NCBI GenBank assembly: GCA_008477525.1
Contig: SPDT01000002.1
Span: 2,046,001 to 2,110,000 of the forward strand
DNA: 64,000 nucleotides
Direction of reading: 5' to 3'
Source: Hypomyces perniciosus
Taxonomy: Eukaryota > Ascomycota > Sordariomycetes > Hypocreales > Hypocreaceae
Shown: piece by piece, positions 1,378 through 63,565 of the stretch
Position numbering within the stretch: the stretch's first letter is position 1
How the letters are laid out: each line of letters opens with the position of its first letter
The notes under the pieces: generated by a model
Seen by the model: the letters and a program-made list of their open reading frames with translations, nothing else
What the model was told of the DNA's origin: nothing
Databases searched by the model: none
Position numbers and translations under genes: made by a program

Positions 1378-1500
1378 TCCATTTCCATCCACGGGACCCT
1401 TCCGTGGATGGATGGATTATGTAATGGCAGGCGCGATGGAATGGATGGAAATGGATGCACGGGCCATCCATTTCCATAAATGGACGCCCGTGGAAATGGA
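1378..1500. repeat. Cluster of inverted repeats built on CCATTTCCATCC
   Basis: CCATTTCCATCCACGGG near 1379-1395 is answered by CCCGTGGAAATGGA at 1487-1500. Further copies of ATGGATGGAAATGGATG and CCATCCATTTCCAT lie between them in both orientations, so the stretch can fold into several alternative hairpins. It could be the subterminal region of a hAT-type or MITE element; no target duplication was identified. It abuts and appears to replace the 5' part of the methyltransferase relic. Confidence 0.6.
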
Positions 1501-1507
1501 CGTGGAA

Positions 1508-13800: not shown

Positions 13801-14340
13801 AAAAAAAAAAAAAGTATATTAATAAGTATAAATTAAAGGGATTAATCTTTAAAGAGGGAGATATAGTCTACTTATATTATTATTTACTAGGGAAAAAGAC
13901 TATAAATATTAAAACAATGCAATTAAGCGATAAATTAAATTTCAAGAAACTTAAACTTTACCTAGTTAAAAAGGTTATTTTAAAAGTTATTTATAAACTT
14001 GCATTACTAGACAGTATTTGGATTTACCTAGTATTTTATATTTTACTACTTGAAAAAGTATTATAAAATAAATTAGAAAATAGATTAATTATAGATTTAA
14101 TCAAAGTATTACTAGTTAAAGAAAAATATAAAGTTAAAGAAATTAAAGCTATAAAAATAAAAGGCAGTAAACGCCAATATTTAGTAAAATAGAAAAACTA
14201 TAGAAAGGAATATAACTCCTAGGAATTTAAAGAATACTTTAAGTACTTTTAGACGACTTTATAGCAATTCCACTAAAATCTAGGCCTTTTAATAAAGGGT
14301 CTAATAAAGCGTTAAAAGTGAGAAGATTAATACCCTGAAA
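7900..14340 (+). pseudogene. Gypsy gag-pol polyprotein remnant, RIP-degraded
   Basis: Reading the plus strand through the stops gives the order gag, zinc knuckle, RT, RNase H, integrase, chromodomain. The zinc knuckle is near 8930-8975 (YNCNKLKYFLRDC). RT is near 11400-11830 (LDFKGAYNLI, AFRTKYGLFKYLVIPF, and YLDNILIF in place of YLDDILIF, a G-to-A change at the catalytic Asp). Integrase core is at 13200-13450 (ILIIIDQFTKYFYFL). A chromodomain is near 14150-14240 (KRQYLVK, then a TAG where Trp is expected). A Cys-pair segment (KCTRCILKSDC) lies at about 14700. Stops are TAG/TAA at Trp, Gln and Arg positions throughout. The short open stretch 13767-14066 is only part of this remnant. Confidence 0.85.
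12775..13000 (-). mobile_element. 226-base solo-LTR-like element, copy 2, TSD GTTAT
   Basis: Reverse orientation (starts TGTAACGGGTGTAGCC, ends CTGTGACA), inserted inside the Gypsy pol between RNase H and integrase. Perfect duplication GTTAT at 12770-12774 and 13001-13005. Its CpGs are intact inside heavily RIPed DNA, so it arrived after the Gypsy was mutated or was never a RIP target. Confidence 0.92.
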
Positions 14341-41256: not shown

Positions 41257-42324
41257 GCAAATTACGCAAGTTAGGCCAAGTAAATTTTATACCTTCAGCT
41301 AATGCAGTATAACTATTTTGTTTATATTACCTAAAAGTATCTCTTTAATTCCTTATATAGCTATAGCTTAATTATTTCTTGAGGATTGCCTCCCTCTAGA
41401 GCAGGAATATAGCTCGCGGAATGCGCTATTTAAGTCTATTAATACCTAGGCAGTAAATTATAGTTATATATTTATAACCGGCAAATCAGTTAAGGAAAAG
41501 AGCGGTAAATAGACTGTTATATATGCCTATAATCAATATCGTTAACCCTTTAATTTATTTAAAGAATGCAGCTGAAAGACTATAACCTGTATAACTGGCT
41601 GCTAATTCTCTATTACTGCTAAAGAGTCTTTTAATAGTATAGTCTAGAGTATATAATATTATCTAGATAAGCGCTTCTCGATATATAACTATAAACTAAG
41701 CTTATATCCATCTATTTATACAGCTTATTGCAAGCTAGCCGCTTAAGAAAATATAAATTTAAAAAAGCTAATAACTGCTAGTATTACTTTAAAAGATATC
41801 TAGACCTATATACACTAATAGGATAATAGTAGTTTAATAATATAGTAAAATATTTATAATTAAATTATTTATATAAAATGAAAGATTTGCAAAGGGCAGA
41901 GTATAATTTATACCTTTATTAATTAAATAGGTAGTAAAGGGTTCTAGAATTAAATATAATTTAATAAAAATAGCCAAGTAACTATTATTTTTTTTGCCTA
42001 TTTTAACTTATTTAAATATTTTTAAGTATATCTAGATCTTTTATTATTAAACAATACTTATAAGATTAATAAATATTAAATGCTGCTTTTTAATATAGTT
42101 AGCGTTAATGCTTATTAGTAATCTTTTTATATTACATTTATATTTTTTAGTAGCGAGTATAAAAAAGATTATTTTTAAGTATTAGATCGGCTTTAATCTT
42201 TATATAAGGTATACAGTATTAGACTTTTATTTATAGTGTTAACTAATTGCTGCTTACTTATATAAATGCAGTTTTAATAGTGTTTTTATTAGCTTAATTA
42301 TTATTTTATATTTAATATATAAAT

Positions 42325-42495
42325 ATTATGGCACGGAAAGGCAGGTTAGGGCAAATATCGTTATTGTGCCGTGGAGAGCGAGAAAGCCCTGAGGCTTTAT
42401 AGAAAGCTATAGCTAGGAACGCGTTGGGGCCTAGTCATATAACCGGGGCTTATATAACAGGGCGTCAATATCGCATCACGGTTAGTGCTGTAACA
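42325..42495 (-). repeat. 3' LTR of the nested Gypsy
   Basis: Contains GGAACGCGTTGGGGCCTAG, shared with 62229-62400. Confidence 0.8.
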
Positions 42496-42854
42496 GTACC
42501 CCCCCTCTTTATCACGCCATTCAGCCGCGAATAGCTATATTGCTTGCATAAATCGAAATTCCAGGTAATATATCTTAATACTTCCGATACAAGGGTAAAT
42601 AGGGCAAATTATACAGTATTTAGTGTTAGTAATATATAGTTTAGTTATAGGCTTTGGCGCAGTATAGTCTTTAGTTAGCGCTCTGTAGGCATTAGTTTCT
42701 TTCTAGTTATTTCCTCTTTTTCCTTTTTTATAATTCTTTTTAATACTTATTGCAGTAGGCCTAGCTTTTTTAGGTTTCTCCTATAAAAGTCTTATATTAC
42801 CCTCTTTTAGCCTTATAAGTCCCTAGCTAATTGCTATATAGTAGCGTAGTATTT

Positions 42855-43433
42855 TGTTAAAAAGGAGGGCTAAAAAGCAAGGATTTCTGTGTAATTGGGT
42901 AACCTTCCTATTCTGGCTAGACCCGGAATTAGGCCCGACACTAGGACCGAGTTCCGGAGGAACTTCGGTGTAAGTCAGGAAATTTCTGTTATCTTTAACG
43001 ATAACAATTAAGCTAGGACCAGCTACCCCGCCTACCCTAGACTCAATACAATGGCCATAATGGCTATTGTGAAAAATCTGACCAAAATGGTTTCCTGTTT
43101 GTATGGCCGTGAGTCGATTTGACTGATTTTATATATAAATGAATTTTGCGGAAAATAGGAATGCGGCCACGAACCCAATTCTGCCACCGCACACCTATTG
43201 TTAGGTCGGAGGACTATTGTAGAAGACAAAGCTATTGTTTATACAATTCACTTCTACACCAGCCGTACATTACTAGATATTGTATAGCTTTCTAGCTATT
43301 AGTTCAGTTACAATTCAATTGTTTATCTATTGTTAACCCAACTAGACTCTCAGTCGTTTCCTTATTGCTGCGTTAGGTGCACCTTCCTAGAAGCTGCACT
43401 TAAATAAGGTTCAGTATAACCTTGTTATTTCAA
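42855..43433 (+). repeat. 5' LTR of Copia A
   Basis: Carries the variants AGCTTTCTAGC and TTCAGTTACAATTC shared with the LTR at 53996-54576. Confidence 0.9.
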
Positions 43434-43452
43434 GGTTATAAGCCTAGGAGAG
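43434..43452 (+). other. Primer-binding site of Copia A
   Basis: GGTTATAAGCCTAGGAG here, GGTTATGAGCCCGGGAG in Copia B at the matching place. The complement contains GGGCTCATAACC, the anticodon stem-loop of initiator tRNA-Met, as in half-tRNA priming of Copia elements. Confidence 0.65.
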
Positions 43453-43879
43453 TTTTCCTTGGGTCTCTATTAGTGGATTTTTCTAGTGGTTACAGCACTT
43501 CCCTTAGCGCTACTATAGCACTTACAGTGGGTTTTTTATAGTGCTTATCCTAGTATTTACAGCACTTCCCCTAGCGCTACTACAGCACTCATAGCGGGTT
43601 TTTATAGTGCTTATCCTAGTGCTTATATTAGCACTTTTAGGATTCTTGGCTATTTAAAGCTATTCCTAGGCTTCTACTGTAAATACTATTACAGTTATAG
43701 TAGTACTGCTACTATTTTCACTATTTTTAGTGATTGATATATACTATATAGTATATTCCCTATTTTTATAGGATATAGGTCTGACATTAGCAGTATAAGT
43801 CGACCTATTAGGGCTCCTAGCAGCCCTATTTCCTTAATTGAGGATAATAGCTCTCCCTAGCAGTAAAGGGATTTATTTA

Positions 43880-46800
43880 TTTAGGTGCAGAATATAGAAT
43901 AAGAGCTTTAGGCACAAAAGGCTCTTACTAAGACAGTCAAGGCACAGCTAAAGGGTCAGAATAATACTATAACTCAGTTATCTAATACTCTAGCTAGCCT
44001 AGCTGCTGCTATATTAGGGCTTCAATAATAGACTATTAGTCTAATATAAATTAACCCTATAGCCCCTATTTTAGTGCTAATACAAGCTCCCACTCCTATT
44101 CTTATACCAGTCCACGTTCTATTTACATTTATTCCTTAACCTTAGACTACTATTTCTACTCTAAATAGTAGTTTTATTAAAGAGGCATTAAAAAAGGTCT
44201 ATAGCTTTCTAGAAAGCTATAAGCTAGTAGGCCCTAATAATTTTGATTAGTGGAAATAGTCTTTAAGTATTATATTAAGGGCTATGGATTACTATACTTT
44301 TATAGAAAATCTTATAGTTACTGATTCTTTATCTAATTCAGAACAGGCCCTGTTATTTATGCTAATTAGGGATAGTTTAATAGCTATTCCTGCTATATCT
44401 ATTACTTGGATTCAAAGCCTAAAAGAAGCATTTTTAGCATTAAAGAGATAATATAGTTACTCTAATACTCTATAGAGAGATTCCCTTTATAGGGAATTTT
44501 ATTTATTAAATTATAGTAATTATAAAGGATCTTTAACTGAATTTAATACTACTTTTAATAGTTTATTAGCTAAGTTAGCTATTTTAAAGGTTAATATTAA
44601 TATACTAGACCAAGTAAATCAATATTTAAATTCCCTAAAAAAGACTTATCTTTAATAGGCTAAAAGGATTAAAGGAACTATTAGATCTAGTAGAGCTATT
44701 AGGCAATTAACTGAAGGTTTTAAGATTTAGTTTTTTATAGCAGATATATTAAAAGAGACTAGGAATCTATCTTTAACTGTATATAAGGTTAATAAGGCCT
44801 TGGGCCCTTTTAAGTCCTTTAATTAAAAGCCAGCTTTAATTCTAATAAAAGGAAAGGAAATTAAAAGAAGTAAAGAAATTAAAAGAATTAAAATTAACAA
44901 AACTAGAAGCAAACTATAGAGGATACTGCTTTTGCTAGTATATATCATTTAGCTACTAGGGAGTGTAGCGCAGAAGAGCTATTAAAAGAGTCTTCTACTA
45001 AATCTAGTAATAGTTTAAATAGTAATCGAGATCTTCTATATACCCTAAACGCTAAAAAAGGCAAAAAGCCTTTTAAGCCTTCTAAATCTTTTAAAAAACC
45101 TAAATCCCCTAGACTTCCTATTTAAGATAGTCTATTATATAATACTAAATCTATAGTTTATATAGTTAACTCTAGGAAATAGTTTATAGACTATAGACTT
45201 AATAAAGGGGATTTAGGTATTATCTATACTAGCAGGGGCCCTGTTACCCTTAAGGGAATAGGTATAGCCACTTTTAATATCTTTAATAAAGATAATAACT
45301 ATAAAGAGATAAAATTACTAAATACCCTTTATTGCCTATAGCTAAATATAAACCTTATAAGTGGTTTAAGGTATTACTAAGCTAAAGGATATATATAGTA
45401 TAATACTCTTTTTATAAAAACTATATAGCCAATAAGGCTATTAAATCCCTTAAAATATAGTTTTTTTCCTTATAATTAAAGGATATATTACACTATATAG
45501 CCATATAAATAGCTATAGAGCTTATAGCTTTATATAGGTTTAAATTCCTATTATTAGTAAGGAAAAGGCTTAGGAATATATTGCTATTCCAGAAGCAGTA
45601 GCTTTAATAAATAAACAACTAACTAGATTTAGCCTTAGGCTTATAAAGAGGAATTATCCTAAGGAAAAGGATCCCTTTAAACTCCCTGAAACCCTAGGCT
45701 AAGTAGAGGAAAAGGGGCCTTATATACCCCTATTGCCTAAGGAAATAGGGGGGAATAAGCCTATAAAGGATACCCTTATAGAGGAAAGGCCCCGTATACC
45801 TAGGGAATCCTCTATTACTAAAGATCTAGAAGTTGTTAAGCTATTTAAACTAGAAGGAGATACTATTATTAATAGTAATTCTAGCCATAAACTGCTAAAG
45901 CTAGCCCTCTTATAGTATAAAAGACTAGGTTATATTAGCTTAAGTCTATTAAAGAAAAGAGCTAAAATAACTACTAGAATTCCTAACTTTAATTCTATTA
46001 AAGAGACTAAATTCTACTGCCTAGTATATAATAAAGGAAAAGCTATTAAAAAGCTTTATTTAAAGCCAATTCCTGATCCACTAGCCTCTCTAGATTATCT
46101 AAAAGCTAATACTTTCTCTATAAAGCCAGTGCCTTATAATAAAGCCCTTATTAGTCTTCTAATTATCAATAGAAAATCAAAATATAGGTGGCTATTCCTT
46201 TTAAAAGATTATAATAGACCTACCCTTCTAGCTACTATATAAGGCTTTATAAATAGCCTGAAAACGCAATATAACCAGTATCTTAAAGAATTTCATTATA
46301 ATAGCAGAAAGGAAATTAATTAAGAACTTTAGACCTAGTTCTTTTCCTTAAAAATTATATATTCCTATAGTAGGCTTTACATTTATAAGTAAAATAGTCT
46401 AATAAAATACTTTATTAAAGTTTTATTAGATAAGCTATAGGCTACTATTATAATAGCTAACCTGCTATTATATCTCTGGAATTTTATTATTACTGCAGTT
46501 TTTAAATTAATTAACTATATAACTATTACTAATAGGGACTCTACCCTATATTAAGAATTATATAAAGACCTAGACCTTAATAAGGATTATAAGCCTAATC
46601 TGTAAAGATATAGAATTATTGGCTTTTATTATAAGGTATTTATTTTACAAAAACAAAAGGCTAAAGGCTATAAATTAGCCTTTAAGACTAAAACTGGGAG
46701 ACTGCTAGCAGTTTTAGGTAGTAATGCCTATTTTATTTATATTCTAACTAGATATATAGTCTTTAAATTATTAACTATAAAGCTATATAAAGATAAAATT

Positions 46801-48720
46801 CCTAAGCTTTAAATCTTAAAGCCTACTATAGGTTAGGGTAATAAGGAATTAAAGGGAGAAATAGAGCTAGATTCTATAGATTAAATGATTCCTAGCTTTC
46901 AGGATATTAATCCCTTACTCCCTAACCTTATTTTAAAGGGAGTACCTACTACTATTCCCCCTATTCCTAGTCTTATTCCTATACTAGTTATACAAGACTC
47001 TGCAGTTATAGAGGATCCTATAGATATAGATATATCCCACTTTCTCTATAATAGCGTTAGAAAGCTAGCCTTTCTAGCTGCTGTAGCTTAAAACCCTTAA
47101 ACGCTTAAGCAAGTACTTTATAGTCCTAATAAAACTAAGTGGCTAGCAGCGATTTATAGCGAATTTGACTAGCTAATCGAATAATATACCTTTGCTTTTA
47201 TTAAATGTAATAGTCTTCTTAAAGGCAGGAATCCTATTACTAGTCGATTAGTTTTAAGATTAAAAAAGACTAAAATAATAAAATAGTTAAATTTAAAGCT
47301 AGGCTAGTTGCTAGGGGCTTTTACTAACTAGAAGGAATAGATTTTAACTAAACGTTCGCCTTAACAGCTGTTCCTTTTACCTAGCGGCTTTTATTAGCCC
47401 TAGCTACTATCTATAACTAGGAAATCAAACAAATGGACTTTATTAATATATTCCTTAACGGGATATTTAAGGAAACTATTTTCCTTAACTTCCCTAAAGG
47501 ATTTAAAGACTATACCAGTTAAGCTTCCCCTGAGATTAAGTCTATTTTTAGAAAGCTAGGTTATAACCTTAATATAGATCAGGTTATTTAGCTACAGAAA
47601 GCTCTTTATAGCCTAAAATAGTCCCCTAAAGAATAGTAACAGGCTTTATAAGCCTTAGGAAATAAACTAGGATATAATCCTTTAATTTCTAACTCTGCTA
47701 TTCTCTATAATCTAAACAACAGTATTTTTATCATTACTTATATAAATAACTGTCTTTTTATTAGACTAAATAAAGAAGCTATAGCCTAGCTAAAGCTAGC
47801 TTTTAATAAAGTCTATACTATAAAAGATAAAGGCGCTGCCTTTTTCTTTTTAAGGGTTTAGATAATTAGGGATAGAAAAAGAGGCCTTCTTTAGCTTTCC
47901 TAGAAACAGTATATTACTAAAGCTATAGAGTTTTTTAACCTTCAAAACTCTAAGCCTATCCAATTACCCCTATAGCCCTCTATTTTAGCTAATAAAACTA
48001 CAATTAAACTAGATAAAGCTAATACTAAGCTTTTCCAAGCTATTATTAATACTATTATCTACTTAACAATTTATACTTAAATAAATACCAGCTTTCCAGT
48101 CCAGTGGCTAGCTAGACAATTCCAAGGCCTATATAAAAAGCACTTAAACGCAGCCCGCAACCTATTATAGTATCTAACTAGTACCTAGAATCTAGCTATT
48201 TAATATACTAGAAAATCTAGTCCTATACCTATTAGTTATTGCAATAGTGATTTTACTAGGGATAAAGAATTAAGTAAATCGACTTATAGCTATATTATTA
48301 TAGTTATTAATAGGGTAATTAACTGGAAATCGAAAAGGGGCTTAACTATCTATCTTTTTACGCTAAAAGCAGAGTTTATAGCTTTTATAGAAGCTACTAG
48401 GGAGATTTAGTGGCTTAGTGGCCTATATAAAGAGGTAAATCGACTAATTAGACAGCTAATCTCTCTACTTAACGACAATAAAAGTGCTATTTCTACCTTA
48501 AATAACCCTACCCTTTATAATCGAATAAAATATACTCTATTACGGTTTAATTATATTAGGGAACAGGTTAAAAATAGCGTTATTACAGTTAGCTATCTGG
48601 AAACTAGTAAAATAGTTACTGATAGGCTTACTAAGCCTTTTCTAGGTCTGAAATTGAAGAACTTTATAAGTCTCTTTAATTTTAAGCTTTTACTTAAGGT
48701 CTATACCTAAGGTTTATACC
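43880..48720 (+). pseudogene. Copia gag-pol remnant
   Basis: Reading through TAG/TAA: gag (44160-44700, FIKEALKKVYSFLESYKLVG), integrase (about 46000-46560), RT (47330-47850, AFALTAVPFTQRLLLALATI and FINIFLNGIFKETIFLNFP) and RNase H (48230-48650, SDFTRDKELSKSTYSYIII and TLKAEFIAFIEATREI). This gag-integrase-RT-RNase H order defines Ty1/Copia. Every domain has several stops. Short open pieces at 45733-45915 and 46885-47091 are parts of it. Confidence 0.88.
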
Positions 48721-48894
48721 CTTTTCTTTCTTATAGTTACTAGCTATTTTTTAGTTATTAGCTATCCTGGTTATTCCTATTATTTTCAGCTATATTTAGC
48801 TATCCTTTTTATTGTTATATCCTAGTTACTTTTCTATATCTAGATCCTATATCTACTTTAAAGTTATATAGGATAGTATCTATTTTAGAGGGAG

Positions 48895-49475
48895 TGTTAA
48901 AAAGGAGGGCTAAAAAGTAAGGATTTCTGTGTAATTGGGTAACCTTCCTATTCTGGCTAGACCCGGAATTAGGCCTGACGCTAGGACCGAGTTCCGGAGG
49001 AACTTTGGTGTAAGTTAGGAAATTTCTATTATCTTCAACGATAACAATTAAGCTAGGACCAGCTACCCCGCCTACCCTAGACTCAATACAATAGCCATAA
49101 TGGCTATTGTGAAAAATCTAACTAAAATGGTTTCCTGTTTGTATAGCCGTAAATCGATTTGACCGATTTTATATACAAATGAATTTTGCGGAAAATAGGA
49201 ATGCGGCCACGAACCTAATTCTGCTACCGCACACCTATTGTTAGGTCGGAGGACTATTATAGAAGATAAAGCTATTATTTATACAATTCACTTCTACACC
49301 AGCCGTATATACACTAGATATTCTATAGCTTCTAGCTATTAGATTGTTTATAATTCAATTATTTATCTATTGTTAACCCAACTAGACTCTCAGTTGTTTC
49401 CTTATTGCTGCGTTAGGTGCACCTTCCTAGAAGCTGCACTTAAATAAGGTTCAGTATAACCTTATTATTTTAATA
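48895..49475 (+). repeat. 3' LTR of Copia A
   Basis: Carries the variants ATATACACTAG and AGCTTCTAGC shared with the LTR at 59951-60531. Confidence 0.9.
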
Positions 49476-52400
49476 ACTATAAACAGGACTGTTATCCTAG
49501 AATAGATTTACTGCTATCTTTTTAATCGAAAACCCTTTAAACTTAAATTAATAAATAGTAAATCCTTCCTAATATAAACTATACTATTCTTTATATATAA
49601 TATCTATATTAATATAAAAGCTTTAATAAATAGCAGCTATATACTTTAGGCTTTTACTAGCTATACTTTTATTAAGCAATTTAATATTATTACCTAATAA
49701 TTACTATTTACTAGGAATCTTTTATTTATTAATAAAAGTATAGCTAATAAAATTTTAGACTTTTTTATTATATAAACTATAATTAACTTTTATACAAAAC
49801 TTTACTTTTTCTTTATTATAAATATCCTTAATAATATACCTATAATTTTTAGCCTTTTATAGCTAAGAAAATATAACTTTAATATTAACTAGGAAAAGTT
49901 AACTATTACCTGTAAATCCTATTACTATTATAACTACTATCTTTTAAAAAGTATAGCTGGCTTTATATAGGTTTTAATAGTAGTTAAGATAAAAAATAAC
50001 TTTATTAAAGCTAATATAAAGAGTATATATTACTAATAACTAATAGTTAAAGATACCTTAAATAAGGCAGAGCTTAACTTAATTAAATAAAGAACTATAT
50101 TATATTAGCAACTATTAGTTGAGAATATTTTAAAAGAAATAAACTATAACTTGATTAAAGAGGGGGCCTTTAAACTATATATTTTATAAACCTTAACACT
50201 AAATTAAAATTACTATATAACCTATAGGTATAGTAGAACTAATAATAAGGAAATATAGGTATAAATAATCCTAAACTAAGTATATATAAGGCCATTACCT
50301 GCTTTTATAATCTATAGTTAATAATAAAAAGGGAAACCTTTATTAAAGCTATTATTATTACTTTTCAGTATACTATTTCCGCAAAATTAAATTAAACTTT
50401 AAAATTAGGAAATATACTTAAATATAGTGGATATATAGATAGTGGCAGTTATAAACTTTATTACCTTTTATCGATAACTATATATCTGCGCAATAAAAGT
50501 AATTTAAGAAAAGATTAACTAAGCTATTAAAACTAAAGAATTAATATTTATTACTTTACTAAAACTTTTAAATAAGTTTTTCTAATAAATATTTATAGGA
50601 TAAGGAGACTATATTAAAATAAAAATAATATTACTTAAAGAAATATATAACTTTATCGATAAATACTACTTTTTAATATAATTTAAAAAAATTATAGCTG
50701 CTAATATTAAGAAATTTATAGCAGGGAAACCTAAGCTTAGTAAGCCAAATATCTTAAAAAAACTGCCATTTTAGCTATATAACTTATATAATACCTTCCT
50801 GTTAAAGACAGTAAATAAGCTTCCCTTATAATAGGCCTAAGACTATAAAATTAAAATACTGCTAAAAAAAGACCTACTATATTAAAAGAATAGGCTATTT
50901 TTATTTAATAAACTGCAGGAAATAAGAAAATAGTTAAATAATAATTTAGTGAAAGGATTTATTTATAAATTGCAAGTATAATATACTACTCCCTTCTTTT
51001 TAGCTGCAAAACTAAGAAATAGCGTTTATATCTATTAAAATTATTAAAGGTTAAATAATATTACTATTAAGAATTAGTATTTATTGCTATTAATTTAGGA
51101 AACCTTTAATGCTTTAAACTATATAAAGGTATATATAAAACTCGATATTATTGCTGTATTTAATAACCTTTATATTATTAAAGGGGATATATAGAAAACA
51201 GTATTTATTATAAGGTTTAGCCTCTTTAAGATATTAATTATACCTTTTAGCCTCTATAATATACCTGCTATATTTAAATATTATATTAACTATACTCTCT
51301 ATAACCTTTTTAACTATATCTATATAATATACTTTAATAATATCTTTATATATTTATTATATTAAAAGGAGTACTGAAAATATATATATAAAGTAATAGC
51401 CTACTTTTTAAATACTGGCCTTTAAATTAATATTATTAAATATAAGTTTAAGATAATAAAAATAAAATACTTTAACTTAATTATTACTTTAAAGGGATTA
51501 AAAATAGATTCTAAGAAAGTTAAGGCTATATTAAACTAGCAATTACTTAAAAAAGTAAAGGACCTATAAAAGTTCTTTAACTTTATAAATTTCTATTACT
51601 ATTTTATTTAAAAATATTTTAAAATAACTACACTATTAAATAAACTTTTAAAAAAAGACTAACTATATATTTAAAGAGAGAAATAGCAGGAAGCCTTTAA
51701 TTTAATAAAATATACCTTTAAATTAGCTTTAATCCTAGCCCTTTTTAACTATAATAAATAAATAGTCTTTAAGACTAATGCCTTTAATTAAGTATTAGGC
51801 AGTATTTTATTGCAGTATAATAAAAAAGGCATTCTATACTTTATTATATTCTTTTCCGTAAAGTATAACGCCTAAAAATGCAATTATAAAATTTATAATA
51901 AAAAACTTTTAGCTATTATTAAAGTAATAAAAGAGTAGCGCCTAGAATTATAAAGCTTATAAGAGTTTAATATTATTATAGACTATAAAAACTTTAAATA
52001 CTTTACTTTAATAAAAGCCTTAAACTAACAGTAAGTCTAATAGTTTAAATTCCTCTCCAGCTTTAACTTCTGCATTATTTACTAATTTAACTTTAAGGCT
52101 ATAAAGCTTAATGCTTTAAGTAGAAAAGCAGAAAATAGGCCTGCGAAATCAGACCCCTTTAATAACTAAATTCAAAACAGGCAATACACTATCCTTTTAT
52201 AGAGTTTTTTTAGCCTTAAAGCTTAGGCAATATTCTAAAAAAAAGTCTTATTAGATATTAAACTATTTATAAAGGCTGCCCTTATAGCTATAATAATACT
52301 AGTAGAAAATAGACTAATTAATAACTTAATTGCAGCGGTATATAAATGAAATACTATAGTGAGAGAAATAGTAACTGCGCTTTAAGACCCTAATATCTGC

Positions 52401-53995
52401 TAATAGCTAAAACAGCTCTGCAAAGAACTCTAGATTACAATAAACGACTGCCAAGTAATGTATAGTAGAATTTACTATTAAGAGCAGCTCTTTATTCCCT
52501 TTAATAATAAACTTGAAATATAAATCTTATTTAGAAACTATTTAAGCGGCCTAGCCATATACCTAGGCAGGTTTAAAACTCTAAACTTTATTAGCTGGAT
52601 ATACTAGTAGCTATAGATCTTAAAAGATACTAAAGTATTTATATAAGCCTGTAAACTATATATTAAAACAAAAGCCTTGCAATCTTTATTATAAACTTTC
52701 CTTTAATAATTACTAGTTTTATTTTATATATAATTAAATATCTTTATTAACTATATTATACTACTGCCTAAATCCTATTAATATAATATTACTTATAAGC
52801 ATTTACTAGTAATAGTTTACTGCTTTATAAAAATATATTATTTTATACCTATTACTTTACTATTAGTAAAAGAGTTAGCTAATATATTTATTAATAGGAT
52901 TTACTGCCTTTATAGTATACCTAACAATATTATATTAGACTGCAGTATATAGTTTATATTAAAATTCTAAAAATAACTCTCAAAGTAATTAAAAGTTATA
53001 TTAAAATAATTATTAGCCTTTTACTTTAAAATTAATAGCTAGACTAAAAGGATTAATATAAGTATAAAATAATACCTATAAGCTTTTATTAACTTTTACT
53101 AGGATAACTAGGCCTATTAGCTTCTATTAACTAAATTCGCTGTAAATAATATAATATTTAAAATTATTAGTATATTGCTATTGTTCGCTAATTATAGTTT
53201 TAACCCTCGCTTAAAGATAAAGCCTTTATAGCCTTACCCGCTAAACCTCTCTGCAGTAAAAAAAAGAGAGTTTTTTTTACACTTGTAACGGGTGTAGCCT
53301 AACTGGAAAGCACGCAGTTAGGGCACCTCTGTATTGTCTATCTATAGCTGAAGGAAGGAAGCTCTATACTAGCTATGTATGCGTTATATAGTTGTGCGTA
53401 TAGGGTTGTGGCCGAGGTGGTTTCCTAATTAGGTAAGCGGTCTAGTATTGGTCGTATTTCCGGATTCGGCGTAGTCGTGATTCCGGGAGACATGGCCTAG
53501 CCTGTGACAACACTAATGCTATTGCCAAGCGATTTAAATATATTATTATACAGCTAAAAGCCTTCGCTAAGGCTTTAAGAAAAAGATATAAAAAAAACGC
53601 AAATATACAGAGAAAGGCATTACTAGTCTATACTATTAGGCAGGAAGTCTTTATTAATATGCAAAATATAAAGACTAACTAGCCAATAAAGAAGCTAGAT
53701 AATAAATAGGCAGGGCCTTATATAATAATAAAAGTATACCTATAAGCTTACGCTATTAGCCTGCTAGAAAGTATAAAATTTTTTTTAGTTTTATATAACT
53801 CTTTCCTATAACTTAAAACAGCTACTTTACTGTATTTTAGGTAAAAGATAATTAATAAAGCTAAGTTAAGGAATATTTAAGGCAGAATACTGGAAAAAGA
53901 AAATAGTATAAATAAAGTATAAAAGAAATAAAAGTTTAAAGCGCTTTAAATTATTATAATAATAATAGATTCCACTATTTTATTAAATAGAAATA
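49476..53995 (+). pseudogene. Inverted protease-pol segment of the nested Gypsy
   Basis: Plus-strand reading gives aspartic protease (near 49620, KALINSGSYTLAF), RT (51150-51430: FITRFSLFKILIIPFSLYN and IYFNNIFIYLL for YFDDILIYS), RNase H (51770-52150, GSILLQYNKKGILYFIIFFS and NALSRKAENRP), integrase (52740-53200) and a C-terminal end near 53640-53830 (NKQAGPYIIIKVY, YNSLLLLKTA-like). It is interrupted by the 226-base LTR at 53284-53509. The direction is opposite to the LTR/PPT polarity of its parent element; the inversion between the two Copia copies explains this. Confidence 0.85.
53284..53509 (-). mobile_element. 226-base solo-LTR-like element, copy 4, TSD ACACT
   Basis: Starts TGTAACGGGTGTAGCC, ends CTGTGACA. 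Duplication ACACT at 53279-53283 and 53510-53514, inside the Gypsy integrase region. Confidence 0.92.
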
Positions 53996-54576
53996 TGTTG
54001 AAATAATAAGGTTATACTAAACCTTATTTAAGTGCAGCTTCTAGGAAGGTGCACCCAACGCAGCAATAAGGAAACAACTGAGAGTCTAGTTGGGTTAATA
54101 ATGGATAAATAATTGAATTGTAACTGAATTAATAGCTAGAAAGCTATAGAATATCTAGTGATGTGCAGCTAGTGTAGAAGTGTATTGTATAAATAATAGC
54201 TTTGTCTTCTACAATAGTCCTCCGACCTAACAATAGGTATACAGTGGCAGAATTAGGTTTATGGCCGCATTCCTATTTTCCGCAAAATTCATTTATATAT
54301 AAAATCAGTCAAATCGACTCACAGCTATATAAACAGGAAACCATTTTGGTCGGATTTTTCACAATAGCCATTATAGCCATTATATTGAGTCTAGGGTAGG
54401 CAGGGTAGCTGGTCCTAGTTTAATTGTTATTATTAAAGATAATAGAAATTTCCTGACTTACACCGAAGTTCCTCCAGAACTCGGTCCTAGTATCGGGCCT
54501 AATTCCGGGTCTAGCCAGAATAGGAAGGTTACCCAATTACACAGAAATCCTTACTTTTTAGCCCTCCTTTTTAACA
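53996..54576 (-). repeat. 3' LTR of Copia B
   Basis: Shares variants with the 5' LTR of Copia A, not with its own 5' LTR. Confidence 0.9.
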
Positions 54577-54699
54577 CTCCCTCTAGAATAGATACTATCC
54601 TATATAACTTTAAAGTAGATATAGGATCTAGATATAGGAAAGTAACTAAAATATAAAGAATAAAAGGATAGCTAATATAGCTAAGGATAAAATAATAAG

Positions 54700-57600
54700 G
54701 ATAGCTAAATAGCTATAAAATAGCTACTAGCTATAAAAAGGGTAAGAACCTTAGGTATATACCTTAGGTAAAATCTTAAGATTAAGGAGATTTATAAAAT
54801 TCCTTAATTTCGGACCTAGAAGAGGCTTAGTAAGCCTATTAGTAACCATTTTACTGGTTTCCAGATAGTTAACTATAATAACGCTATTTTTAACCTATTC
54901 CTTAATATAATTAAACCGCAATAAAGTATATTTTATTCGATTATAAAGGGTAGGGTTATTTAAAGTAAAAATAGCACCTTCATTATCGTTAAGTAGAGAG
55001 ATTGGCTGTATAATTAGTTAATCTACCTCTTTATATAGGCTAATAAGCCACTAAATCTCCCTAATAGCTTCTATAAAAGCTATAAACTCTGCTTTTAATA
55101 TAAAAAGATAGATAGTTAAGCCCCTTTTTAATTTCCAGTTAATTAGCCTATTAACAACTATAATAATATAGCTATAAGTCGATTCACTTAATTCTTTATC
55201 CCTAGTAAAATCATTATTGCAATAACTAATAGGTATAGGACTAGATTTTCTAATATATTAAATAGCTAGATCCTAGGTACTATTTAAATACTATAATAGG
55301 TTACAGGCTGCGTTTAAGTGCTCTTTATAAGGGCCTTGAAATTATCTAACTAGCCACTAGACTGGAAAGCTAATATCTACTTAAATATAAATTATTAAAT
55401 AGATAATAATATTAATAATAACTTAAAAAAGCTTAGTATTAGCTTTATCCAGTTTAGTTATAGTTTTATTAGCTAAACTAAAGGGCTATAGGGGTAATTG
55501 GATAGGCTTAGAGTTTTAAAGGTTAAAAAACTCTATAGCTTTAATAATATACTGTTTCTAGGAAAGTTAAAAAAGGCCTTTTTTTCTATCTTTAACTATC
55601 TAAACCCTTAAGAAAAAAAAGGCAGGGCCTTTATCTTCTATAGTATAGACTTTATTAAAAGCTAGCTTCAGCTAGGCTATAGCTTCTTTATCTAATCTAA
55701 TAAAAAGACAGTTATCTATATAAGTAATAATAAAAATACCGTTATTTAAATTATAGAGAATAGCAGAGTCAGAAATTAAAGGATTATATCCTAGTTTATT
55801 TCCTAAAGCTTATAGAGCCTGTTGCTATTCTTTAAGGGACTATTTTAGGCTGTAAAGAGCTTTATATAACTGAATAACCTAATCTATATCAGGGTTATAA
55901 CCTAGCTTTCTAAGAATAGACTTAATTTTAAAGGAAGCTTAACTGGTATAGTCTTTAAATCCTTCAGGAAAGTTAAGGAAGATAGTTTCTTTAAGTATCC
56001 TGTTAAGGAATATACTAATAAAGTCGATTTATTTAATTTCCCAGTTATAAATAGTAGCTAAGGCTAATAAGAGCCGCCAGGTAGAAAGAACAGCTGTTAA
56101 GGCGAACGTTTAGTTGAAATCTATTCCTTCTAGTTATTAAAAACCCCTAGCAACTAGCCTAGCTTTAAATTTTACTATTCTATTATTCTCGTCTTTCTTA
56201 ATCTTTAAAACTAATCGACTAGTAATAGGATTCCTGCCTTTGAGAATACTATTACATTTAATAAAAGCAAAGGTATATTGTTTAACTAGCTGGTTAAATT
56301 CACTATAAATCGCTCCTAGCCACTTAGTTTTATCAGGACTATAAAGTACTTGCTTAAGCGTTTATGGGTCTTGTGCTGCAGCAGCTGGAAAAGCTAGCTT
56401 TCTAATACTATTATAAAGAAAATGGGATATATCTATATCTATAGGATCCTCTATAACTGCAGAGTCTTATATAACTAGTATAGGAATAGGGGGAATAGTA
56501 GTAGGTACTCCCTCTAGAATAGGGTTAGGGAGTAAGGGATTAATATCCTGAGAGCTAGGAATCATTTAATCTATAGAATCTAGCTCTATTTCTCCCTTTA
56601 ATTCCTTATTATCCTGACCTATAGTAGGCTCTAGGATTTAAAGCTCAGGAATCTTATCTTTATACAGCTTTATAGTTAACGATTTAAAGACTATATATCT
56701 AGTTAGGATATAGATAAGATAAGTATTACTACCTAAAACTGCTAGTAGTCTCGCAGTTTTAGTCTTAAAGGCTAATTTATAGCCTTTAGCCCTTTATTTT
56801 TATAAAACGAATACCTTACAATAAAAGCCAATAATCCTATATCTTCGCAGATTAGGTTTATAATCTTTATTAAAGTCTAGGTCTTTATATAATTCTTAAT
56901 AAAGGGTAGAGTCTTTATTAGTAATAGCTATATAGTTAACTAATTTAAAAACCACAGTAATAATAAAATTCTAGAGATATAATAGTAGGTTAGCCGCTAT
57001 AATAGTAGCCTATAGGCTATCTAATAAAACTCTAATAAAGCATTCTATTAAACCATTCTGCTTATAAATATAAAGGCTGCTATAGGAATATATAATTCTT
57101 AAAGAAAAGAACCAGGTCTAAAGTTCCTAATTAATTTCCTTTCCGCTATTATAATAAAATTCCTTAGGATACTGGTTATACTGCATTTTCAGGCTATTTA
57201 TAAAGCCTTATATAATAGCTAAAAGGGTGGGTCCACTATAATCTTTTAAAAGGAATAGCTACCTATATCTTGATTTTCTATTAATAATTAAAAGACTAAT
57301 AGGGGCTTTATTATAAGGTATTAGATTTATAGAGAAAGTATTAGCTTCTAAATAATCTAGAGAGGCTAGTGGATCAGGAATTAGCTTTAAATAAAGCCTT
57401 TTAATAGCTTTTCCCTTATTATATACTAGGCAGTGGAATTCAGTCTCTTTAATAGAATTAAAGTTAGGAATTCTAGTAGTTATTTTAGCTGTCTTCTTTA
57501 GTAGACTTAAGCTAATATAACCTAGTCTTTTATGCTATAAAAGGGCTAGCTTTAGTAGCTTGTAGCTAGTACTATTAGTAATAGTATCTCCCTTTAGTTT

Positions 57601-59600
57601 AATTGGCTTAACAACTTCTAGATCTTTAGTAATAGAGGATCCCCTAGGTATACAGGGCCTTTCCTCTATAAAGGTATCCTTTATAGGCTTATTCCCCCTT
57701 ATTTCCTTAGGCAATAGGGGTATATAGGGCCCCTTTTCTTCCACTTAGCCTGGGGTTTCAGGGAGTTTAAAGGGATCCTTTCCCTTAGGATTCTTCCTCT
57801 TTATAAGCCTAGGGCTAGATCTAGTTGGTTGTTTATTCGTTGAAGCTACTGCTTCCGGAATAGCAATATATTCCTAAGCCTTTTCCTTGCTAATAGTAGG
57901 GATTTGAACCTGTATAGAGCTATAAGCTCTATAGCTATTTATATGGCTGTATAGTATAGTATATCCTTTAATTGTAAAGAAAAAACCATATTTTAAGGGA
58001 TTTAATAGCCCTATTAGCTGCATAGTTTTTATAAAAAGAGTATTATACTATATATATCCTCCAGCTTAGTAATGCCCTAGGCCACTTATAAGGTTTATAT
58101 TTAGCTGTAGGTAATAGAGGGTATTTAGCAATTTTATCTCTTTATAGTTATTATCTTTATTAAGGATATTAAAAGTGGCTGTTCCTATTCCTTTAAGGGT
58201 AACAGGGCCCCCGCCAGTATGGACAATACCTAGGTCCCCTTTATTAGGTCTATAGTCTATAAACCATTTCCTAGAATTAACTATATAAACTATAGATCTA
58301 GTATTATATAATAAACTATCTTAAATAGAAAGTTTAGGGGGTTTAGGTTTTTTAGAAGATTTAAAAGGCTTAGAAAAATTAAAAGACTTTTTTCCTTTTT
58401 TAGCGTTTAGAGTATATAAAAGATCTCGATTACTATCTAAACTATTAATAGATTCAGTAAAAGACTCTTTTAACAGCTCTTTTAAGCTATACTCCTTAGT
58501 AGCTAGATAATATATACTAGTAAAAGCAGTATCCTTTATAGTTTACTTCTGGTTTTATTAATTCTAATTCTTTTAATTTCTTTATTTCTTTTAATTTCCT
58601 TTCCTTTTATTAAAATTAAAAGCTGGCTTTTAATTGGGGGACTTAAAAGGGCCCGAGGCCTTATTAACTTTATATACAGTTAAAGATAGATTCCTAGTCT
58701 CTTCTAATATATCTGCCATAAGGAACTGAATATTGAAACCTTTAGTAGATTACCTAATAGCTCTGCTAAATCTAATGGTTCCTTTAATTCTTTCAGCCCA
58801 CTAAGGATAAGTCTTTTCTAAGGCATTTAAATATTAATTTACTTAATCTAGTATATTAATATTAACCTTTAAAATAGCTAGCTTAGCTAATAAGCTATTA
58901 AAAGTAGTATTAAATTCAGCTAAAGATCCTTTATAATTACTGTAATTTAATAAATAAAATTCCCTATAAAGGGAATCTCTCTATAGAGTATTAGAGTAAC
59001 TATATTATCTCTTTAATGCTAAAAATGCTTCTTTTAGGCTTTGAATCCAAGTAATAGATATAGCAGGAATAGCTATTAAACTATCCCTAATTAGCATAAA
59101 TAACAGGGCCTGTTCTGAATTAGATAAAGAATCAGTAACTATAAGATTTTCTATAAAAGTATAGTAATCCATAGCCCTTAATATAATACTTAAAGACTAT
59201 TTCCACTAATCAAAATTATTAGGGCCTACTAGCTTATAGCTTTCTAGAAAGCTATAGACCTTTTTTAATGCCTCTTTAATAAAACTACTATTTAGAGTAG
59301 AAATAGTAGTCTAAGGTTAAGGAATAGATGAAAATAGAACCTGGATTAGTATAGGAATAAGAGTAGGAGCTTGTATTAGCACTGAAATAGGGGCTATAGG
59401 ATTAACTTATATTAGACTAGTAGCCTGTTGTTAAAGCCCTGATATAGCAGTAGCTAGGCTAGCTAGAGTATTAAATAACTGAGTTATAGTATTATTCCAA
59501 CCCTTTAACTGTGCCTTGACTGTCTCAGTAAGAGCCCTCTATGCCCAAAGCTTTTGTTTTATATTCTGCACTTAAATAAATAGATCCCTTTACTGCTAGG
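54700..59600 (-). pseudogene. Copia gag-pol remnant of element B
   Basis: Minus-strand copy of the polyprotein described for Copia A: RNase H near 54830-55230, RT near 55600-56120, integrase near 56900-57400, gag near 58700-59300, all with TAG/TAA stops. The 57535-57744 and 59596-59844 frames are pieces of it. Confidence 0.85.
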
Positions 59601-59950
59601 GAGAGCTATTATCCTTAATTAAGGAAATAGGGCTATTAGGAGCCCTGATAGGTCGACTTATACTGCTATCAGACCTATATCCTATTAAAATAGGGAATAT
59701 ACTATATAGTATATATAAATCACTAAAAATAGCGAAAATAGTAGCAGTACTACTATAACTGCAACAGTATTTGCAGTAGAAGCCTAGGAATAGCTCCTGG
59801 TAGCCAAAATCCAAGAATACTGATATAAGCACTAGGATAAGCACTATAAAAACCCGCTATAAGTGCTGTAGTAGCGCTAGGGGAAGTGCTGTAACCACTA
59901 GAAAAATCCACTAATAGAGACCCAAGGAAAACTCTCCCGGGCTCATAACC

Positions 59951-60531
59951 TGTTAAAATAACAAGGTTATACTAAACCTCATTTAAGTGCAGCTTCTAGG
60001 AAGGTGCACCCAACGCAGCAATAAGGAAACGACTAAGAGTCTAGTTAGGTTAACAATAGATGAACAATTAAATTGTAAACGATCTAATAGCTAGAAGCTA
60101 TAGAATATCTAGTGTATATGCGGCTGGTATAGAAGTGAATTGTATAAACAATAGCTTTGTCTTCTACAATAGTCCTCCGACCTAACAATAAGTGTGCGGT
60201 AGCAGAATTGGGTTCATGGCCGCATTCCTATTTTCCGTAAAATTTATTTGTATATAAAATCGGTCAAATCGATTTACGGCTATACAAACAGGAAACCATT
60301 TTGGTTAGATTTTTCACAATAGCCATTATAGCTATTGTATTGAGTCTAGGGTAGGCGGGGTAGCTGGTCCTAGCTCAATTCTTATCGTTGAAGATAATAG
60401 AAATTTCCTGACTTACACTAAAGTTCCTCCGGAACTCGGTCCTAGCGTCGGGCCTAATTCCGGGTCTAGCCAGAATAGGAAGGTTACCCAATTACACAGA
60501 AATCCTTACTTTTTAGCCCTCCTTTTTAACA
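59951..60531 (-). repeat. 5' LTR of Copia B
   Basis: Shares variants with the 3' LTR of Copia A. Confidence 0.9.
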
Positions 60532-62228
60532 ATAGTTAACCTCTGCTTACGACTTTTAGTAAAAGTTAATCTTTTCTTTAGTTTATAAGTTAAGTTTAGG
60601 TTCTTGATAGGTAGGTTTAGCTAAATTAAAGTAAACTAAAAGTTAATAGGGCAGCGCTATTATTATTATCTTTATTAATACTTAAAGAGGGTATATTATT
60701 TAAAGCCTAGATTTATAAATTACTTAAACAATATAGGTAATATTAGCGCGCTATTAAAGTTTAATTATTATACTTTACTAAGCTATTTTATTATTAGTTT
60801 TAAAGTATTATTAAGTTAAAGTATAGCTAGTATAGCTAAACTTAGCGGTTTTAATTTTATATTTAGTATAGATTGCTTTAATATATATTAAACTGCTTTT
60901 TTTTTATATTTATTAAAGCTATAGCCTGCTTTTTTATAGTAAAAGTAAAGTCCTTTAGTAATATATTCCTTATACAAGACTTAAAGGTAAGGTAATAGGG
61001 TATATATAGTATTTAATTATATTAAGTTGCTAGCTAGCGCTAAGGCAGCAGCTTAGTTATTTTACTGGTCTTAATAATATTACTATTAATACTAATACTG
61101 CTGCTGTTAATAGCTTTATTAACGCTAGCCTATTTAGGCAGTATAGACAGTATTATAATAGGCGCCCTTTTAAAGCCTATTATAAATAATTTAATAGAGT
61201 TAATACTATTTAGTAAAGTTAAATTTATCTAGTTTAATTATTTAAATCTTTATAGTCTTAATAAACTTTTAAGAGACCTTTATCTTTAAAGCTTTAATTA
61301 TTTATTTAATAGTTTTATTGTATTTACTCTTTAATATAGATAACTTTATTATAAAGTTTTAAAAAAGCTTATTTAATATATATAGGTTATTAAAGGACTA
61401 TAATACCTTTTAAAAAAGGTTAATTATTTTATATTATTTATTAAAATTAATAAAAAGTACTATATTAATCTTTTAATATTATTAAGCAGGGTTATTAAAA
61501 CTTTTAATAATAGTATTAAAGTTTTTTTATTACAGTTAATATATATCTCTTTTAAAAGACGTATAATATATAAAATCTTTTTAAATTTAATTAAAAAAAT
61601 CGATTAATTGCCTATAAAGGTAATATTAATCTAAAAACACTAATTAATATATTTTTACTAATATTTAGTAATATCCTTTTATTTACTATTAAATTGCTTA
61701 AAGTCTTTAGTTTAATAGCAGCCAGGTAGGTTATTATTTCTAGGGCTTAATAGTAAAACTGCATTTAAAGTTTTAACCTAAACTTTAATTTATACTTTAA
61801 AGTTTTAATTTTCAACTACCTACTTTAAGATTTTTTATTTAAAGGTTTATTTTTATTCTTTTTATTAAGCTAGGCCCTTTTTAATTATTTAGTTAAAGAG
61901 GTGGAATTAATAATTACATTTATTAAATGTATATAATCGCTATTAACGCTAGATTTTTATAAGGTTTTAAAAAGAAAAGGGAAAAGTATAAGCTTTATAG
62001 CTAAAACTATAGTCTATTAGGCTAGGTTAAGCTGCAGGGCAAGGTTTAGGGTATTTATATTTATTTTGCTTATAATTGGTTTCCTATAGATATAGGGTTT
62101 AAAGGATAAGGGCTAGGCTATAAAGGCGTTATTATAGGTTTAGGAATAAATAGGGATTTAAGGGGAATTTATAATCGGTTAAGTATATACCTCGCGATAG
62201 CGCAGCTAAGTTAAAGGACAGCATAAAC
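60532..62228 (-). pseudogene. Gag region and leader of the nested Gypsy
   Basis: AT-rich, RIP-mutated; by position it is the 5' part of the minus-strand Gypsy. No domain can be read with confidence. Confidence 0.45.
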
Positions 62229-62400
62229 TATTACAGCACAGAAAGGCAGGTTAGGGTAAATATTATTGTTATACTGTAGAGAGCAAGAAAGCCTTAAGGC
62301 TTTACGGAAAGCTATAGCTAGGAACGCGTTGGGGCCTAGTCACGTGACCGGGGCTCACGTAACAGGGCGTCAACATTGCGTTACAGTCAGTGCCGTAACA
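62229..62400 (-). repeat. 5' LTR of the nested Gypsy
   Basis: Direct copy of 42325-42495; minus-strand start TGTTACGGCAC. It keeps CACGTGACCGGGG, where the other copy has TATAACCGGGG, so it is less RIP-altered. Confidence 0.8.
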
Positions 62401-63565
62401 ATAAATAAAGCTATTATTTCATATTACCTACTACTTTTTATAATATAAAAGCGTTTAATTACTTTATTAAAAGGCAATATTACAGTAATTAAAGTATCTA
62501 GATCTAAGAATTAAGATATATTTTATTAATTCTAGCATTTAATTATTAATTTATTTACTAAGGCAGTCTTTATAGAGTAGGTTTTATAATTTAAACAGTA
62601 ATATCTTTTAGACTATATTAAAAAAGTTATATATATTAAATTAACCTGGCTATAGTTATATAAAGAAAGTTTTATTAAGGCTTAGGTTAATTAATATATA
62701 TACTTTAGTAATATAGTTATATTTTAAGTTAAAGGTATTTATATACTTTTAAAGTTTTATTTAAAGATATTTATATTAGATCTCTTTAAGGCTTAGAGAG
62801 CAATAAAGTATATTTTATTAAATTAACTACTAAAGCTGCGATTAAATTAAGCTAAACAGTAAAGCTAAAGATTAATTAATATCTTAAATTACTTATATTC
62901 TACTATATATAGCTAGGTTTTATATAAAGTATTACAGAAAGTTAAAAAGCAGTAAAAGCTTTTATAAAAAACAGATCCACCTCCTTTACTTAACTATATT
63001 AAAGCTTTTATATAATTATTTTGTTTACCTTCCCTTTATTAACTAAAATCTTTATAAAGCAGAATTAGATTCTTCTTTTATTATATTTTTATTTATATTG
63101 ACATCTATAATGCCCCAGAGAACTATTATACTTATTAAAGCCTTAAAGACTTAAATTATAAATAAATAGGTTAATATTATAAAACCTTTTAGCTAAAAAG
63201 AGACTGGACTAAGGAAGAGATAATGGTATATTTTAATTAGTTAAATAATAAAAATAGCTGCATTAAGGCCTTTATTATATAGCAGTTCATAGATAATCTA
63301 GTTAAAGGCAGTAAATAAGGCGTGGTATATATCTGGGAGGAGATTAAGAAGGATAGTGAAGAATAGCAGTGTTTATATTTAATTGAATAGCTAGCTTTTA
63401 ATTTTTATCCAATTCAAACAGCAAAACCTCAATAAAGCTTTAAAAAAATACCCCCTAATATATGCTGGTGTAGCATACATTAAGGGATTACTTCCTGCGT
63501 TTATATACTTATACAAATATCTTAGTCTAACTATCTGGTATCTGATTGGCTGGGGCCCACTCTAG

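What the first reader, a model, noticed from the sequence alone, without database searches (positions are those of the whole stretch)
42850..60536. Two Copia elements with exchanged target duplications record a segmental inversion
Copia A has flanks TATTT (left) and ACTAT (right); Copia B, read on its own strand, has ACTAT before its 5' LTR and TATTT after its 3' LTR. Neither element has matching flanks, but the flanks match perfectly between elements. LTR variants agree: A-5' and B-3' share AGCTTTCTAGC and TTCAGTTAC; A-3' and B-5' share ATATACACTAG and AGCTTCTAGC. This is what homologous recombination between two inverted elements leaves behind. It inverted 49476-53995 and explains why the Gypsy pol there faces the opposite way to its LTRs and polypurine tract.
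Basis: seen in the sequence. Interest (0 to 1): 0.9.

Follow-up and report, generated by a model that had tools for sequence, protein, structure and literature searches.

The report
Inversion between two nested Copia retrotransposons
In a fungal genome, two old retrotransposons lying in opposite directions inside a third one recombined with each other and flipped the DNA between them, a well-known kind of rearrangement that is recorded here unusually completely.

Summary
Copia A (42855-49475, +) and Copia B (53996-60531, -) carry exchanged 5-bp target duplications, TATTT and ACTAT. LTR differences that RIP cannot make number 2 (A-5'/B-3') and 1 (A-3'/B-5') across elements, 5 and 6 within them, and 0-2 in 11 control elements with matching flanks. 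The surrounding Gypsy decides it: in every scored hit pair that could be matched (21 of 21 and 20 of 20) its middle segment lies the other way round, with 5-bp overlaps at the junctions. The RT there reads + (Ty3 RT, E 5.8e-16); Gypsy LTRs and polypurine tract read -.

Added here: the crossover lies inside the elements, near 44.7-45.2 kb, so 13-14 kb was inverted, not only 49476-53995. Nearby, A and B share a 384-bp identical tract although 91.7% identical overall; the longest run in 35 other pairs among nine copies is 113 bp. This looks like gene conversion after RIP.

Assembly error cannot be excluded without reads. It is a new member of a known kind (Galileo-type inversion).

The parts
42319..42323 (.). 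Gypsy target duplication, left copy (TTTAT on Gypsy's own strand)
   Evidence: read from sequence printed; matches 62401-62405
42324..42495 (-). Gypsy 3' LTR
   Evidence: direct repeat D3; ends read
42496..42510 (-). polypurine tract next to the Gypsy 3' LTR (AAAGAGGGGGGG on own strand)
42850..42854 (.). target duplication TATTT (element a), left of Copia A
42855..49475 (+). Copia A, inferred chimera: 5' part from element a, 3' part from element b
42855..43433 (+). A 5' LTR (terminal CA missing)
44130..44513 (+). 384-bp tract identical to B 58943-59326 (inferred gene-conversion tract)
44733..45199 (+). inferred crossover interval in A
   Evidence: non-RIP markers switch between 44709 and 45062; sharing with L076 alone switches between 44733 or 45132 and 45199
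48895..49475 (+). A 3' LTR (element b type)
49476..49480 (.). target duplication ACTAT (element b), right of Copia A
49476..53995 (.). internal Gypsy segment, inverted relative to the rest of the Gypsy
50910..51596 (+). degenerate Gypsy reverse transcriptase, reading opposite to the Gypsy LTRs
   Evidence: match to Ty3 RT 4ol8, E 5.8e-16
53284..53509 (+). solo LTR of another family nested in the Gypsy segment, TSD acact 53279-53283 and 53510-53514
53991..53995 (.). target duplication TATTT (read on B's strand), element a, after B's 3' LTR
53996..60531 (-). Copia B, inferred chimera: 5' part from element b, 3' part from element a
53996..54576 (-). B 3' LTR (element a type)
58247..58723 (-). inferred crossover interval in B
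58943..59326 (-). 384-bp tract identical to A 44130-44513
59951..60531 (-). B 5' LTR (element b type)
60532..60536 (.). target duplication ACTAT (read on B's strand), element b, before B's 5' LTR
62229..62400 (-). Gypsy 5' LTR
   Evidence: ends read
62401..62405 (.). Gypsy target duplication, right copy (TTTAT on own strand)

Best explanation
A Ty3/Gypsy element of about 6.7 kb on the minus strand (42324-62400, own TSD TTTAT) received two insertions of one Copia family in opposite orientation: element a at TATTT and element b at ACTAT. Homologous (ectopic, non-allelic) recombination with a crossover between the two inverted Copias, near 44.7-45.2 kb in A and 58.2-58.7 kb in B, inverted the roughly 13-14 kb between the crossover points. 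Both Copias became chimeras (A = a-left + b-right, B = b-left + a-right), and their LTRs and target duplications were exchanged. The inner 4.5 kb of the Gypsy now faces backwards. A 384-bp stretch near the crossover was also made identical in the two copies, most likely by gene conversion after most RIP had accumulated. Shown here: flanks, LTR pairing, orientation, the usual order of the Gypsy, a marker switch inside both Copias, the identical tract. Inferred: that the marker switch is the crossover, that crossover and conversion are one event, and the life-cycle stage at which it happened.
For: Flanks and LTR site patterns. LTR non-RIP differences 2 and 1 across elements against 5 and 6 within them, with 0-2 in the 11 of 15 control elements whose own flanks match, two of those allowing a transition. 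Gypsy: in 20 fetched copies the middle piece is opposite to the adjoining outer piece; the overlap is exactly 5 bases in 17 of the 18 that span the left junction (6 in L031) and in 20 of 20 at the right junction, 10 of the 38 needing extrapolation over 2-4 unaligned end bases. Across capped hit lists, 21 of 21 and 20 of 20 paired hits have this order and 0 the window's. Gypsy RT on the + strand against LTRs and polypurine tract on the - strand, with a matching Gypsy TSD. Internal switch: of 25 informative non-RIP sites (8 of them in the LTRs), those up to 44709 are 8 of 10 A-like-L075, and those from 45062 on are 15 of 15 A-like-L076. Variants shared with L076 alone: in B 9 of 13 lie at 43316-45132; in A all lie from 45199 on, apart from two columns of a tandem-repeat indel. 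The 384-bp identical tract is expected about 2e-13 times at the overall divergence.
Against: Raw LTR distances do not separate the pairings for A5. Two of the ten informative non-RIP sites left of the switch point the other way (43490, a 67-bp tandem-repeat indel, and 44125), and 4 of 13 sites shared by B and L076 alone lie right of it. Informative transitions show no clean switch: left of 44709 they lean to the first type only slightly, and at 47500-48680 they lean the wrong way, 19 to 11. At 48687-48814 B carries variants of a third type found in neither L075 nor L076. L075 and L076 are only proxies for the parents, and L076 was singled out among seven copies after looking. A's own haplotype over 44632/44709/45062 occurs in 4 of 17 other copies. 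The identical tract lies about 200-700 bp from the inferred crossover, not on it. No uninverted allele from another strain was available.
Confidence: 0.9

Rival explanations
1. Assembly error: the DNA is uninverted in the fungus, and the assembler crossed between the two similar inverted Copias, placing the middle segment backwards. This would give the same exchanged flanks and chimeric elements.
For: The two copies are 91.7% identical inverted repeats and share a 384-bp exact tract, where a short-read assembler could switch. No reads were available.
Against: 44.0 Mb in 23 contigs, one of them 6.9 Mb, suggests long reads (inference). Copies that differ at 543 of 6520 sites are easily told apart by reads longer than the elements. 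The marker switch lies outside the exact tract.
Confidence: 0.07
2. The inversion arose by replication template switching between the inverted copies instead of a crossover that repaired a double-strand break.
For: It would leave the same flanks, chimeras and orientation; sequence alone cannot separate the two (from general knowledge).
Against: None specific. The identical tract is of the size of meiotic conversion tracts in fungi (crossover-associated 432 bp in Zymoseptoria, 284 bp in Neurospora; PMC10294615, passages seen).
Confidence: 0.1
3. No inversion: two independently recombined Copias whose flanks match by coincidence, in a Gypsy copy rearranged some other way.
For: Recombinant elements seem to exist elsewhere: 2 of 15 control elements carry the two main LTR haplotypes at opposite ends, two more differ at one or more of the four markers, and none of these four has exactly matching flanks.
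Against: A two-sided flank match between copies with non-matching own flanks is seen in 0 of 28 control pairs. The Gypsy is reversed exactly between the same two 5-bp sites.
Confidence: 0.01

Closest known systems
Galileo-generated inversions of Drosophila buzzatii, such as 2z3 (PMC2775673; abstract lines and passages seen)
   Same: Two copies in opposite orientation at the ends of an inverted segment, exchanged target duplications, both copies chimeric.
   Different: Galileo is a DNA transposon; its inversions are chromosomal and were compared with non-inverted chromosomes. Here the elements are LTR retrotransposons, the inverted segment is about 13-14 kb inside another transposon, and the uninverted order is known from other copies of that transposon, not from the same locus.
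BuT5-generated inversion 2s of Drosophila mojavensis (PMC3355041; passages seen)
   Same: Exchanged target duplications taken as evidence of ectopic recombination.
   Different: DNA transposon, fixed chromosomal inversion.
Recombinant LTR elements of fungi: Mycosphaerella fijiensis, 125 LTR elements with different flanks (PMC3562529; passages seen), and Podospora crapaud, 7 of 150 copies with disparate ends (PMC10787394; passages seen)
   Same: Fungal LTR elements with mismatched flanks or LTRs explained by ectopic recombination or gene conversion.
   Different: In the passages seen, single elements are counted and reciprocal partners are not matched. Here both partners, the inverted segment and the likely crossover region are identified.

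Membership tests
TE-mediated inversion by ectopic recombination | two homologous copies in opposite orientation flank the inverted segment | tested here: met
   inverted repeats I1-I16, 86-95% complementary
TE-mediated inversion by ectopic recombination | target duplications exchanged between the copies | tested here: met
   background
TE-mediated inversion by ectopic recombination | both copies chimeric | tested here: met
   LTRs and internal non-RIP markers, with proxy parents; transitions do not show it cleanly
TE-mediated inversion by ectopic recombination | a single copy of each target in the uninverted sequence | tested here: met
   in other copies of the Gypsy, not at the same locus
TE-mediated inversion by ectopic recombination | uninverted allele at this locus in another strain | not testable with these tools
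   no other strain held
Ty1/Copia | integrase region upstream of RT; Copia-type domains | tested here: met
   on B's strand Pol_BBD (4.7e-6), then gag_pre-integrs (0.0049), then RVT_2 (2.2e-4); only Pol_BBD passes its curated cut-off, and 4 of the 7 fragments gave no Copia domain. That this order is typical of Copia is recalled
Ty1/Copia | TG...CA LTRs and 5-bp target duplications | tested here: met
   TG or CA often read TA, as RIP would leave them
Ty3/Gypsy | Ty3-type reverse transcriptase | tested here: met
   4ol8 E 5.8e-16; Pfam gave nothing significant
RIP-mutated repeat | excess TpA, depleted CpA/TpG | tested here: met
   TpA/ApT 1.5-1.6 in A, B and the middle segment against 0.6-0.7 in the P450 gene and in 1-6000; of 490 A/B transitions 243 are in CpA/TpG context and 247 are not, so the context preference is not clean

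The most novel reading that the evidence does not exclude
The exchange took place between copies that RIP had already driven about 8-9% apart. The 384-bp tract differs by 28-37 transitions from each of the seven other copies compared and still holds 14 CpA/TpG sites, yet A and B do not differ in it, while outside it about 60% of such sites differ by a rough count. RIP divergence would then not shut off ectopic crossover and conversion between linked inverted copies, and RIP mutations can serve as a clock for the event.
Probability: 0.5. Interest if true: 0.5.

Novelty: new member of a known kind. Interest (0 to 1): 0.35.

Why it matters
In the two fungal papers of which I saw passages, elements with mismatched ends are counted singly. 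Here both partners, the inverted segment, the likely crossover region and a conversion tract can be read from one locus. If the conversion really postdates RIP, it bears on the suggestion made for M. fijiensis in PMC3562529 (passage) that very degenerate copies may not be targets of ectopic recombination.

Tried and rejected
Solo LTRs as controls: in the best LTR hits L002-L008 no internal Copia sequence adjoined the LTR (L004 holds a second, divergent LTR with internal sequence nearby), so they could not give LTR pairs. Paired 5'/3' LTRs were fetched instead.

Second exchanged pair elsewhere: other inverted Copia neighbours were looked at. The C23 minus element (L083/L082) has intact flanks atatt/atatt, so it is not the partner of the mismatched L037/L038. 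The C10 plus element has intact flanks actat/actat. On C8 the one comparison possible does not match. On C4 the 5' ends were missing or broken, so it is undecided. On C22 a minus element's 3' flank and a plus element's 5' flank are both gatta (L092, L094), but the other ends were not found. Left open.

Crossover inside the identical tract: considered, but B shares L076-only variants at 44610, 44691, 44721, 44733 and 45132, and non-RIP markers at 44632 and 44709 agree, which puts the switch to the right of the tract. Over 44632/44709/45062, B's combination G-T-A occurs in 0 of 17 other copies, the two inferred parents in 4 and 5, and A's own in 4. Linkage in this family is weak, so this is suggestive only.

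Pfam on nine short Gypsy ORF fragments and on two longer frames with X at stops gave nothing significant; a sequence comparison with solved structures did. No tRNA and no Rfam match at gathering score in the window. A literature search limited to years up to 1990 returned nothing; a search on Xylariales and RIP was seen as a listing only and not used; so was one on RIP and premeiotic recombination, apart from PMC10294615. No LTR tree was built; site patterns were used because RIP-type transitions dominate distances.

Rows dropped: 15 of the 19 fetched LTR pairs were used (L051/52, L069/70, L071/72 and L073/74 left out for broken, missing or poorly aligned LTRs). In one search, 19 elements were used, typed: 16 of those 19 pairs (including L073/74) and 3. 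In one search, 39 of 44 LEFT rows, 35 of 91 MID-right rows (those that reach the junction end), 39 of 45 RIGHT rows and 38 of 69 MID-left rows were typed; the window's own rows and short, partial or weak rows were left out. All these lists hold only the 40 best-scored candidates of several hundred. The 20 Gypsy loci were picked by hand because pieces lay side by side in the hit lists. The Fisher value counts a 12-base indel as 12 columns and uses a cut chosen after seeing the data; it is not relied on.

Full report
Setting. The window lies at C5:2046001-2110000 of a 44.0 Mb genome in 23 contigs. A P450 gene at 38406-39941 has its best relatives at 60-64% identity in Pseudomassariella, Hypoxylon, Daldinia and similar genera, which I recall as Xylariales; the host is probably a Sordariomycete near that order. 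The species was not identified. A, B and the middle segment are A+T-rich with RIP-like dinucleotide indices.

Anatomy. A Ty3/Gypsy element occupies 42324-62400 on the minus strand, with 172-bp LTRs (42324-42495 and 62229-62400), a polypurine tract beside the left LTR and a matching own target duplication TTTAT on both sides (read). Two Copia elements are nested in it, A (42855-49475, +) and B (53996-60531, -). Domain order on B's strand, Pol_BBD then gag_pre-integrase then RVT_2, fits Copia, though only Pol_BBD passes its curated cut-off.

Observation. Flanks and LTR variants are as described. A's flanks are TATTT and ACTAT; B's on its own strand are ACTAT and TATTT. Among 19 other Copia copies, 11 have exactly matching own flanks and 13 do if transitions are allowed; cross-element matches occur in 6 of 342 ordered pairs.

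LTRs. RIP makes transitions, so I counted only transversions and gaps. Within A there are 5 such differences and within B 6; A5-B3 has 2 and A3-B5 has 1. In 15 control elements, the 11 with matching flanks (two of them allowing a transition) have 0-2. The four others have 14, 8, 5 and 3. The window pairs therefore look like true LTR pairs only when taken across elements. Raw distance is less clear: A5 is nearer A3 (32 substitutions) than B3 (35), while the other three LTRs are nearest their cross partner among the four. Two main LTR haplotypes run through the family, so the agreement alone would not be enough.

Gypsy test. Three window pieces (42300-42854, 49476-53995, 60532-62450) were compared separately with 20 other copies. 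In all 20 the middle piece is opposite to the adjoining outer piece. The overlap at the junction is exactly 5 bases in 20 of 20 at the right junction and in 17 of 18 at the left (6 in L031); L035 and L036 do not reach the left junction, and 10 of the 38 values were extrapolated over 2-4 unaligned end bases. Over the capped hit lists, 21 of 21 and 20 of 20 paired hits have this order and none has the window's. In the window the RT of the middle segment reads on the + strand (Ty3 RT, E 5.8e-16), against the LTRs. The middle segment is inverted in the window.

Crossover. Seven full-length copies were aligned with A and B. Taking L075 and L076 as relatives of the two parents, 25 non-RIP sites are informative (8 of them in the LTRs): up to 44709, 8 of 10 have A like L075; from 45062 on, 15 of 15 have A like L076. 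Variants found only in L076 and one of the pair lie in B at 43316-45132 (9 of 13, the other four scattered to the right) and in A from 45199 on, apart from two columns of a tandem-repeat indel. So the crossover is probably at about 44.7-45.2 kb in A and 58.2-58.7 kb in B, and 13.0-14.0 kb was inverted. Informative transitions do not show the switch cleanly; at 47500-48680 they lean the wrong way, 19 to 11. At 48687-48814 B carries a third type of sequence. The family recombines a good deal, so the location is less certain than the inversion itself.

Identical tract. A 44130-44513 and B 58943-59326 are identical over 384 bp; the next longest A/B run is 90 bp, and among the other 35 pairs of nine copies the longest is 113 bp. 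At the overall A/B divergence such a run is expected about 2e-13 times. The tract differs from each of the seven other copies by 28-37 transitions, not polarised, so it has a mutation history of its own, which A and B share. It has 14 CpA/TpG sites, none differing, while by a rough count 59.6% of such sites differ outside it; of all A/B transitions 243 are in CpA/TpG context and 247 are not. The simplest reading is gene conversion between the two copies after the last effective RIP. It lies 200-700 bp left of the inferred crossover, so it may be a patchily repaired part of the same event or a separate one. Its length is like conversion tracts reported for Zymoseptoria and Neurospora (PMC10294615, passages). 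A fault of assembly or polishing could also make such a tract.

Order of events. Gypsy insertion; two Copia insertions in opposite orientation; RIP; crossover with inversion; conversion tract. The place of the inversion relative to RIP follows from the tract only if both belong to one event. The nested solo LTR (53284-53509) could be older or younger.

Comparison. The pattern meets the criteria used for Galileo in Drosophila: opposite orientation, exchanged target duplications, chimeric copies (PMC2775673, passages). The phrase 'exchanged target site duplications' was found in two papers of the held library, both on Drosophila. Other searches listed fungal work on ectopic recombination, of which I saw passages of two papers; I cannot say that no fungal case is in print.

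Verdict. A real, well-documented inversion of a known kind, subject to the untested chance of assembly error. Its special value is the completeness of the record and the conversion tract that seems to postdate RIP.

Noticed in passing
53284-53509: Solo LTR (226 bp, TSD acact) listed at 100% identity (rounded) in 40 places, this one included, the list being capped; six pairs of places lie about 5194 bp apart, which suggests intact, very young LTR elements whose LTRs RIP has not touched.
   Followed up: partly
L037/L038 (C23:3048493-3055429), L041/L042 (C3:967400-974077), L065/L066 (C22:3160811-3167363): Other Copia copies with different LTRs at their two ends (14, 5 and 8 non-RIP differences) and flanks that do not match exactly (L041/L042 match at 4 of 5 bases); possible recombinants whose partners were not found.
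   Followed up: partly
L092 and L094 (C22:3273500-3281720): A minus Copia's 3' flank and a neighbouring plus Copia's 5' flank are both gatta, a possible half of a second exchange.
   Followed up: partly
C23:3030290-3043530: By coordinates a Copia (minus, flanks atatt) is interrupted by another Copia of the same family (plus, flanks taaat).
   Followed up: partly
L022, L026, L034: Gypsy copies flanked on both sides by pieces of another Gypsy copy: apparent nested insertions within one family.
   Followed up: no
43490 (67-bp indel): Tandem repeat after the Copia 5' LTR that is present in some elements and absent in others.
   Followed up: no
8000-14000 and 36000-38000: Further A+T-rich blocks (GC 0.23-0.25) in a window whose other parts reach 0.52 GC.
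   Followed up: no
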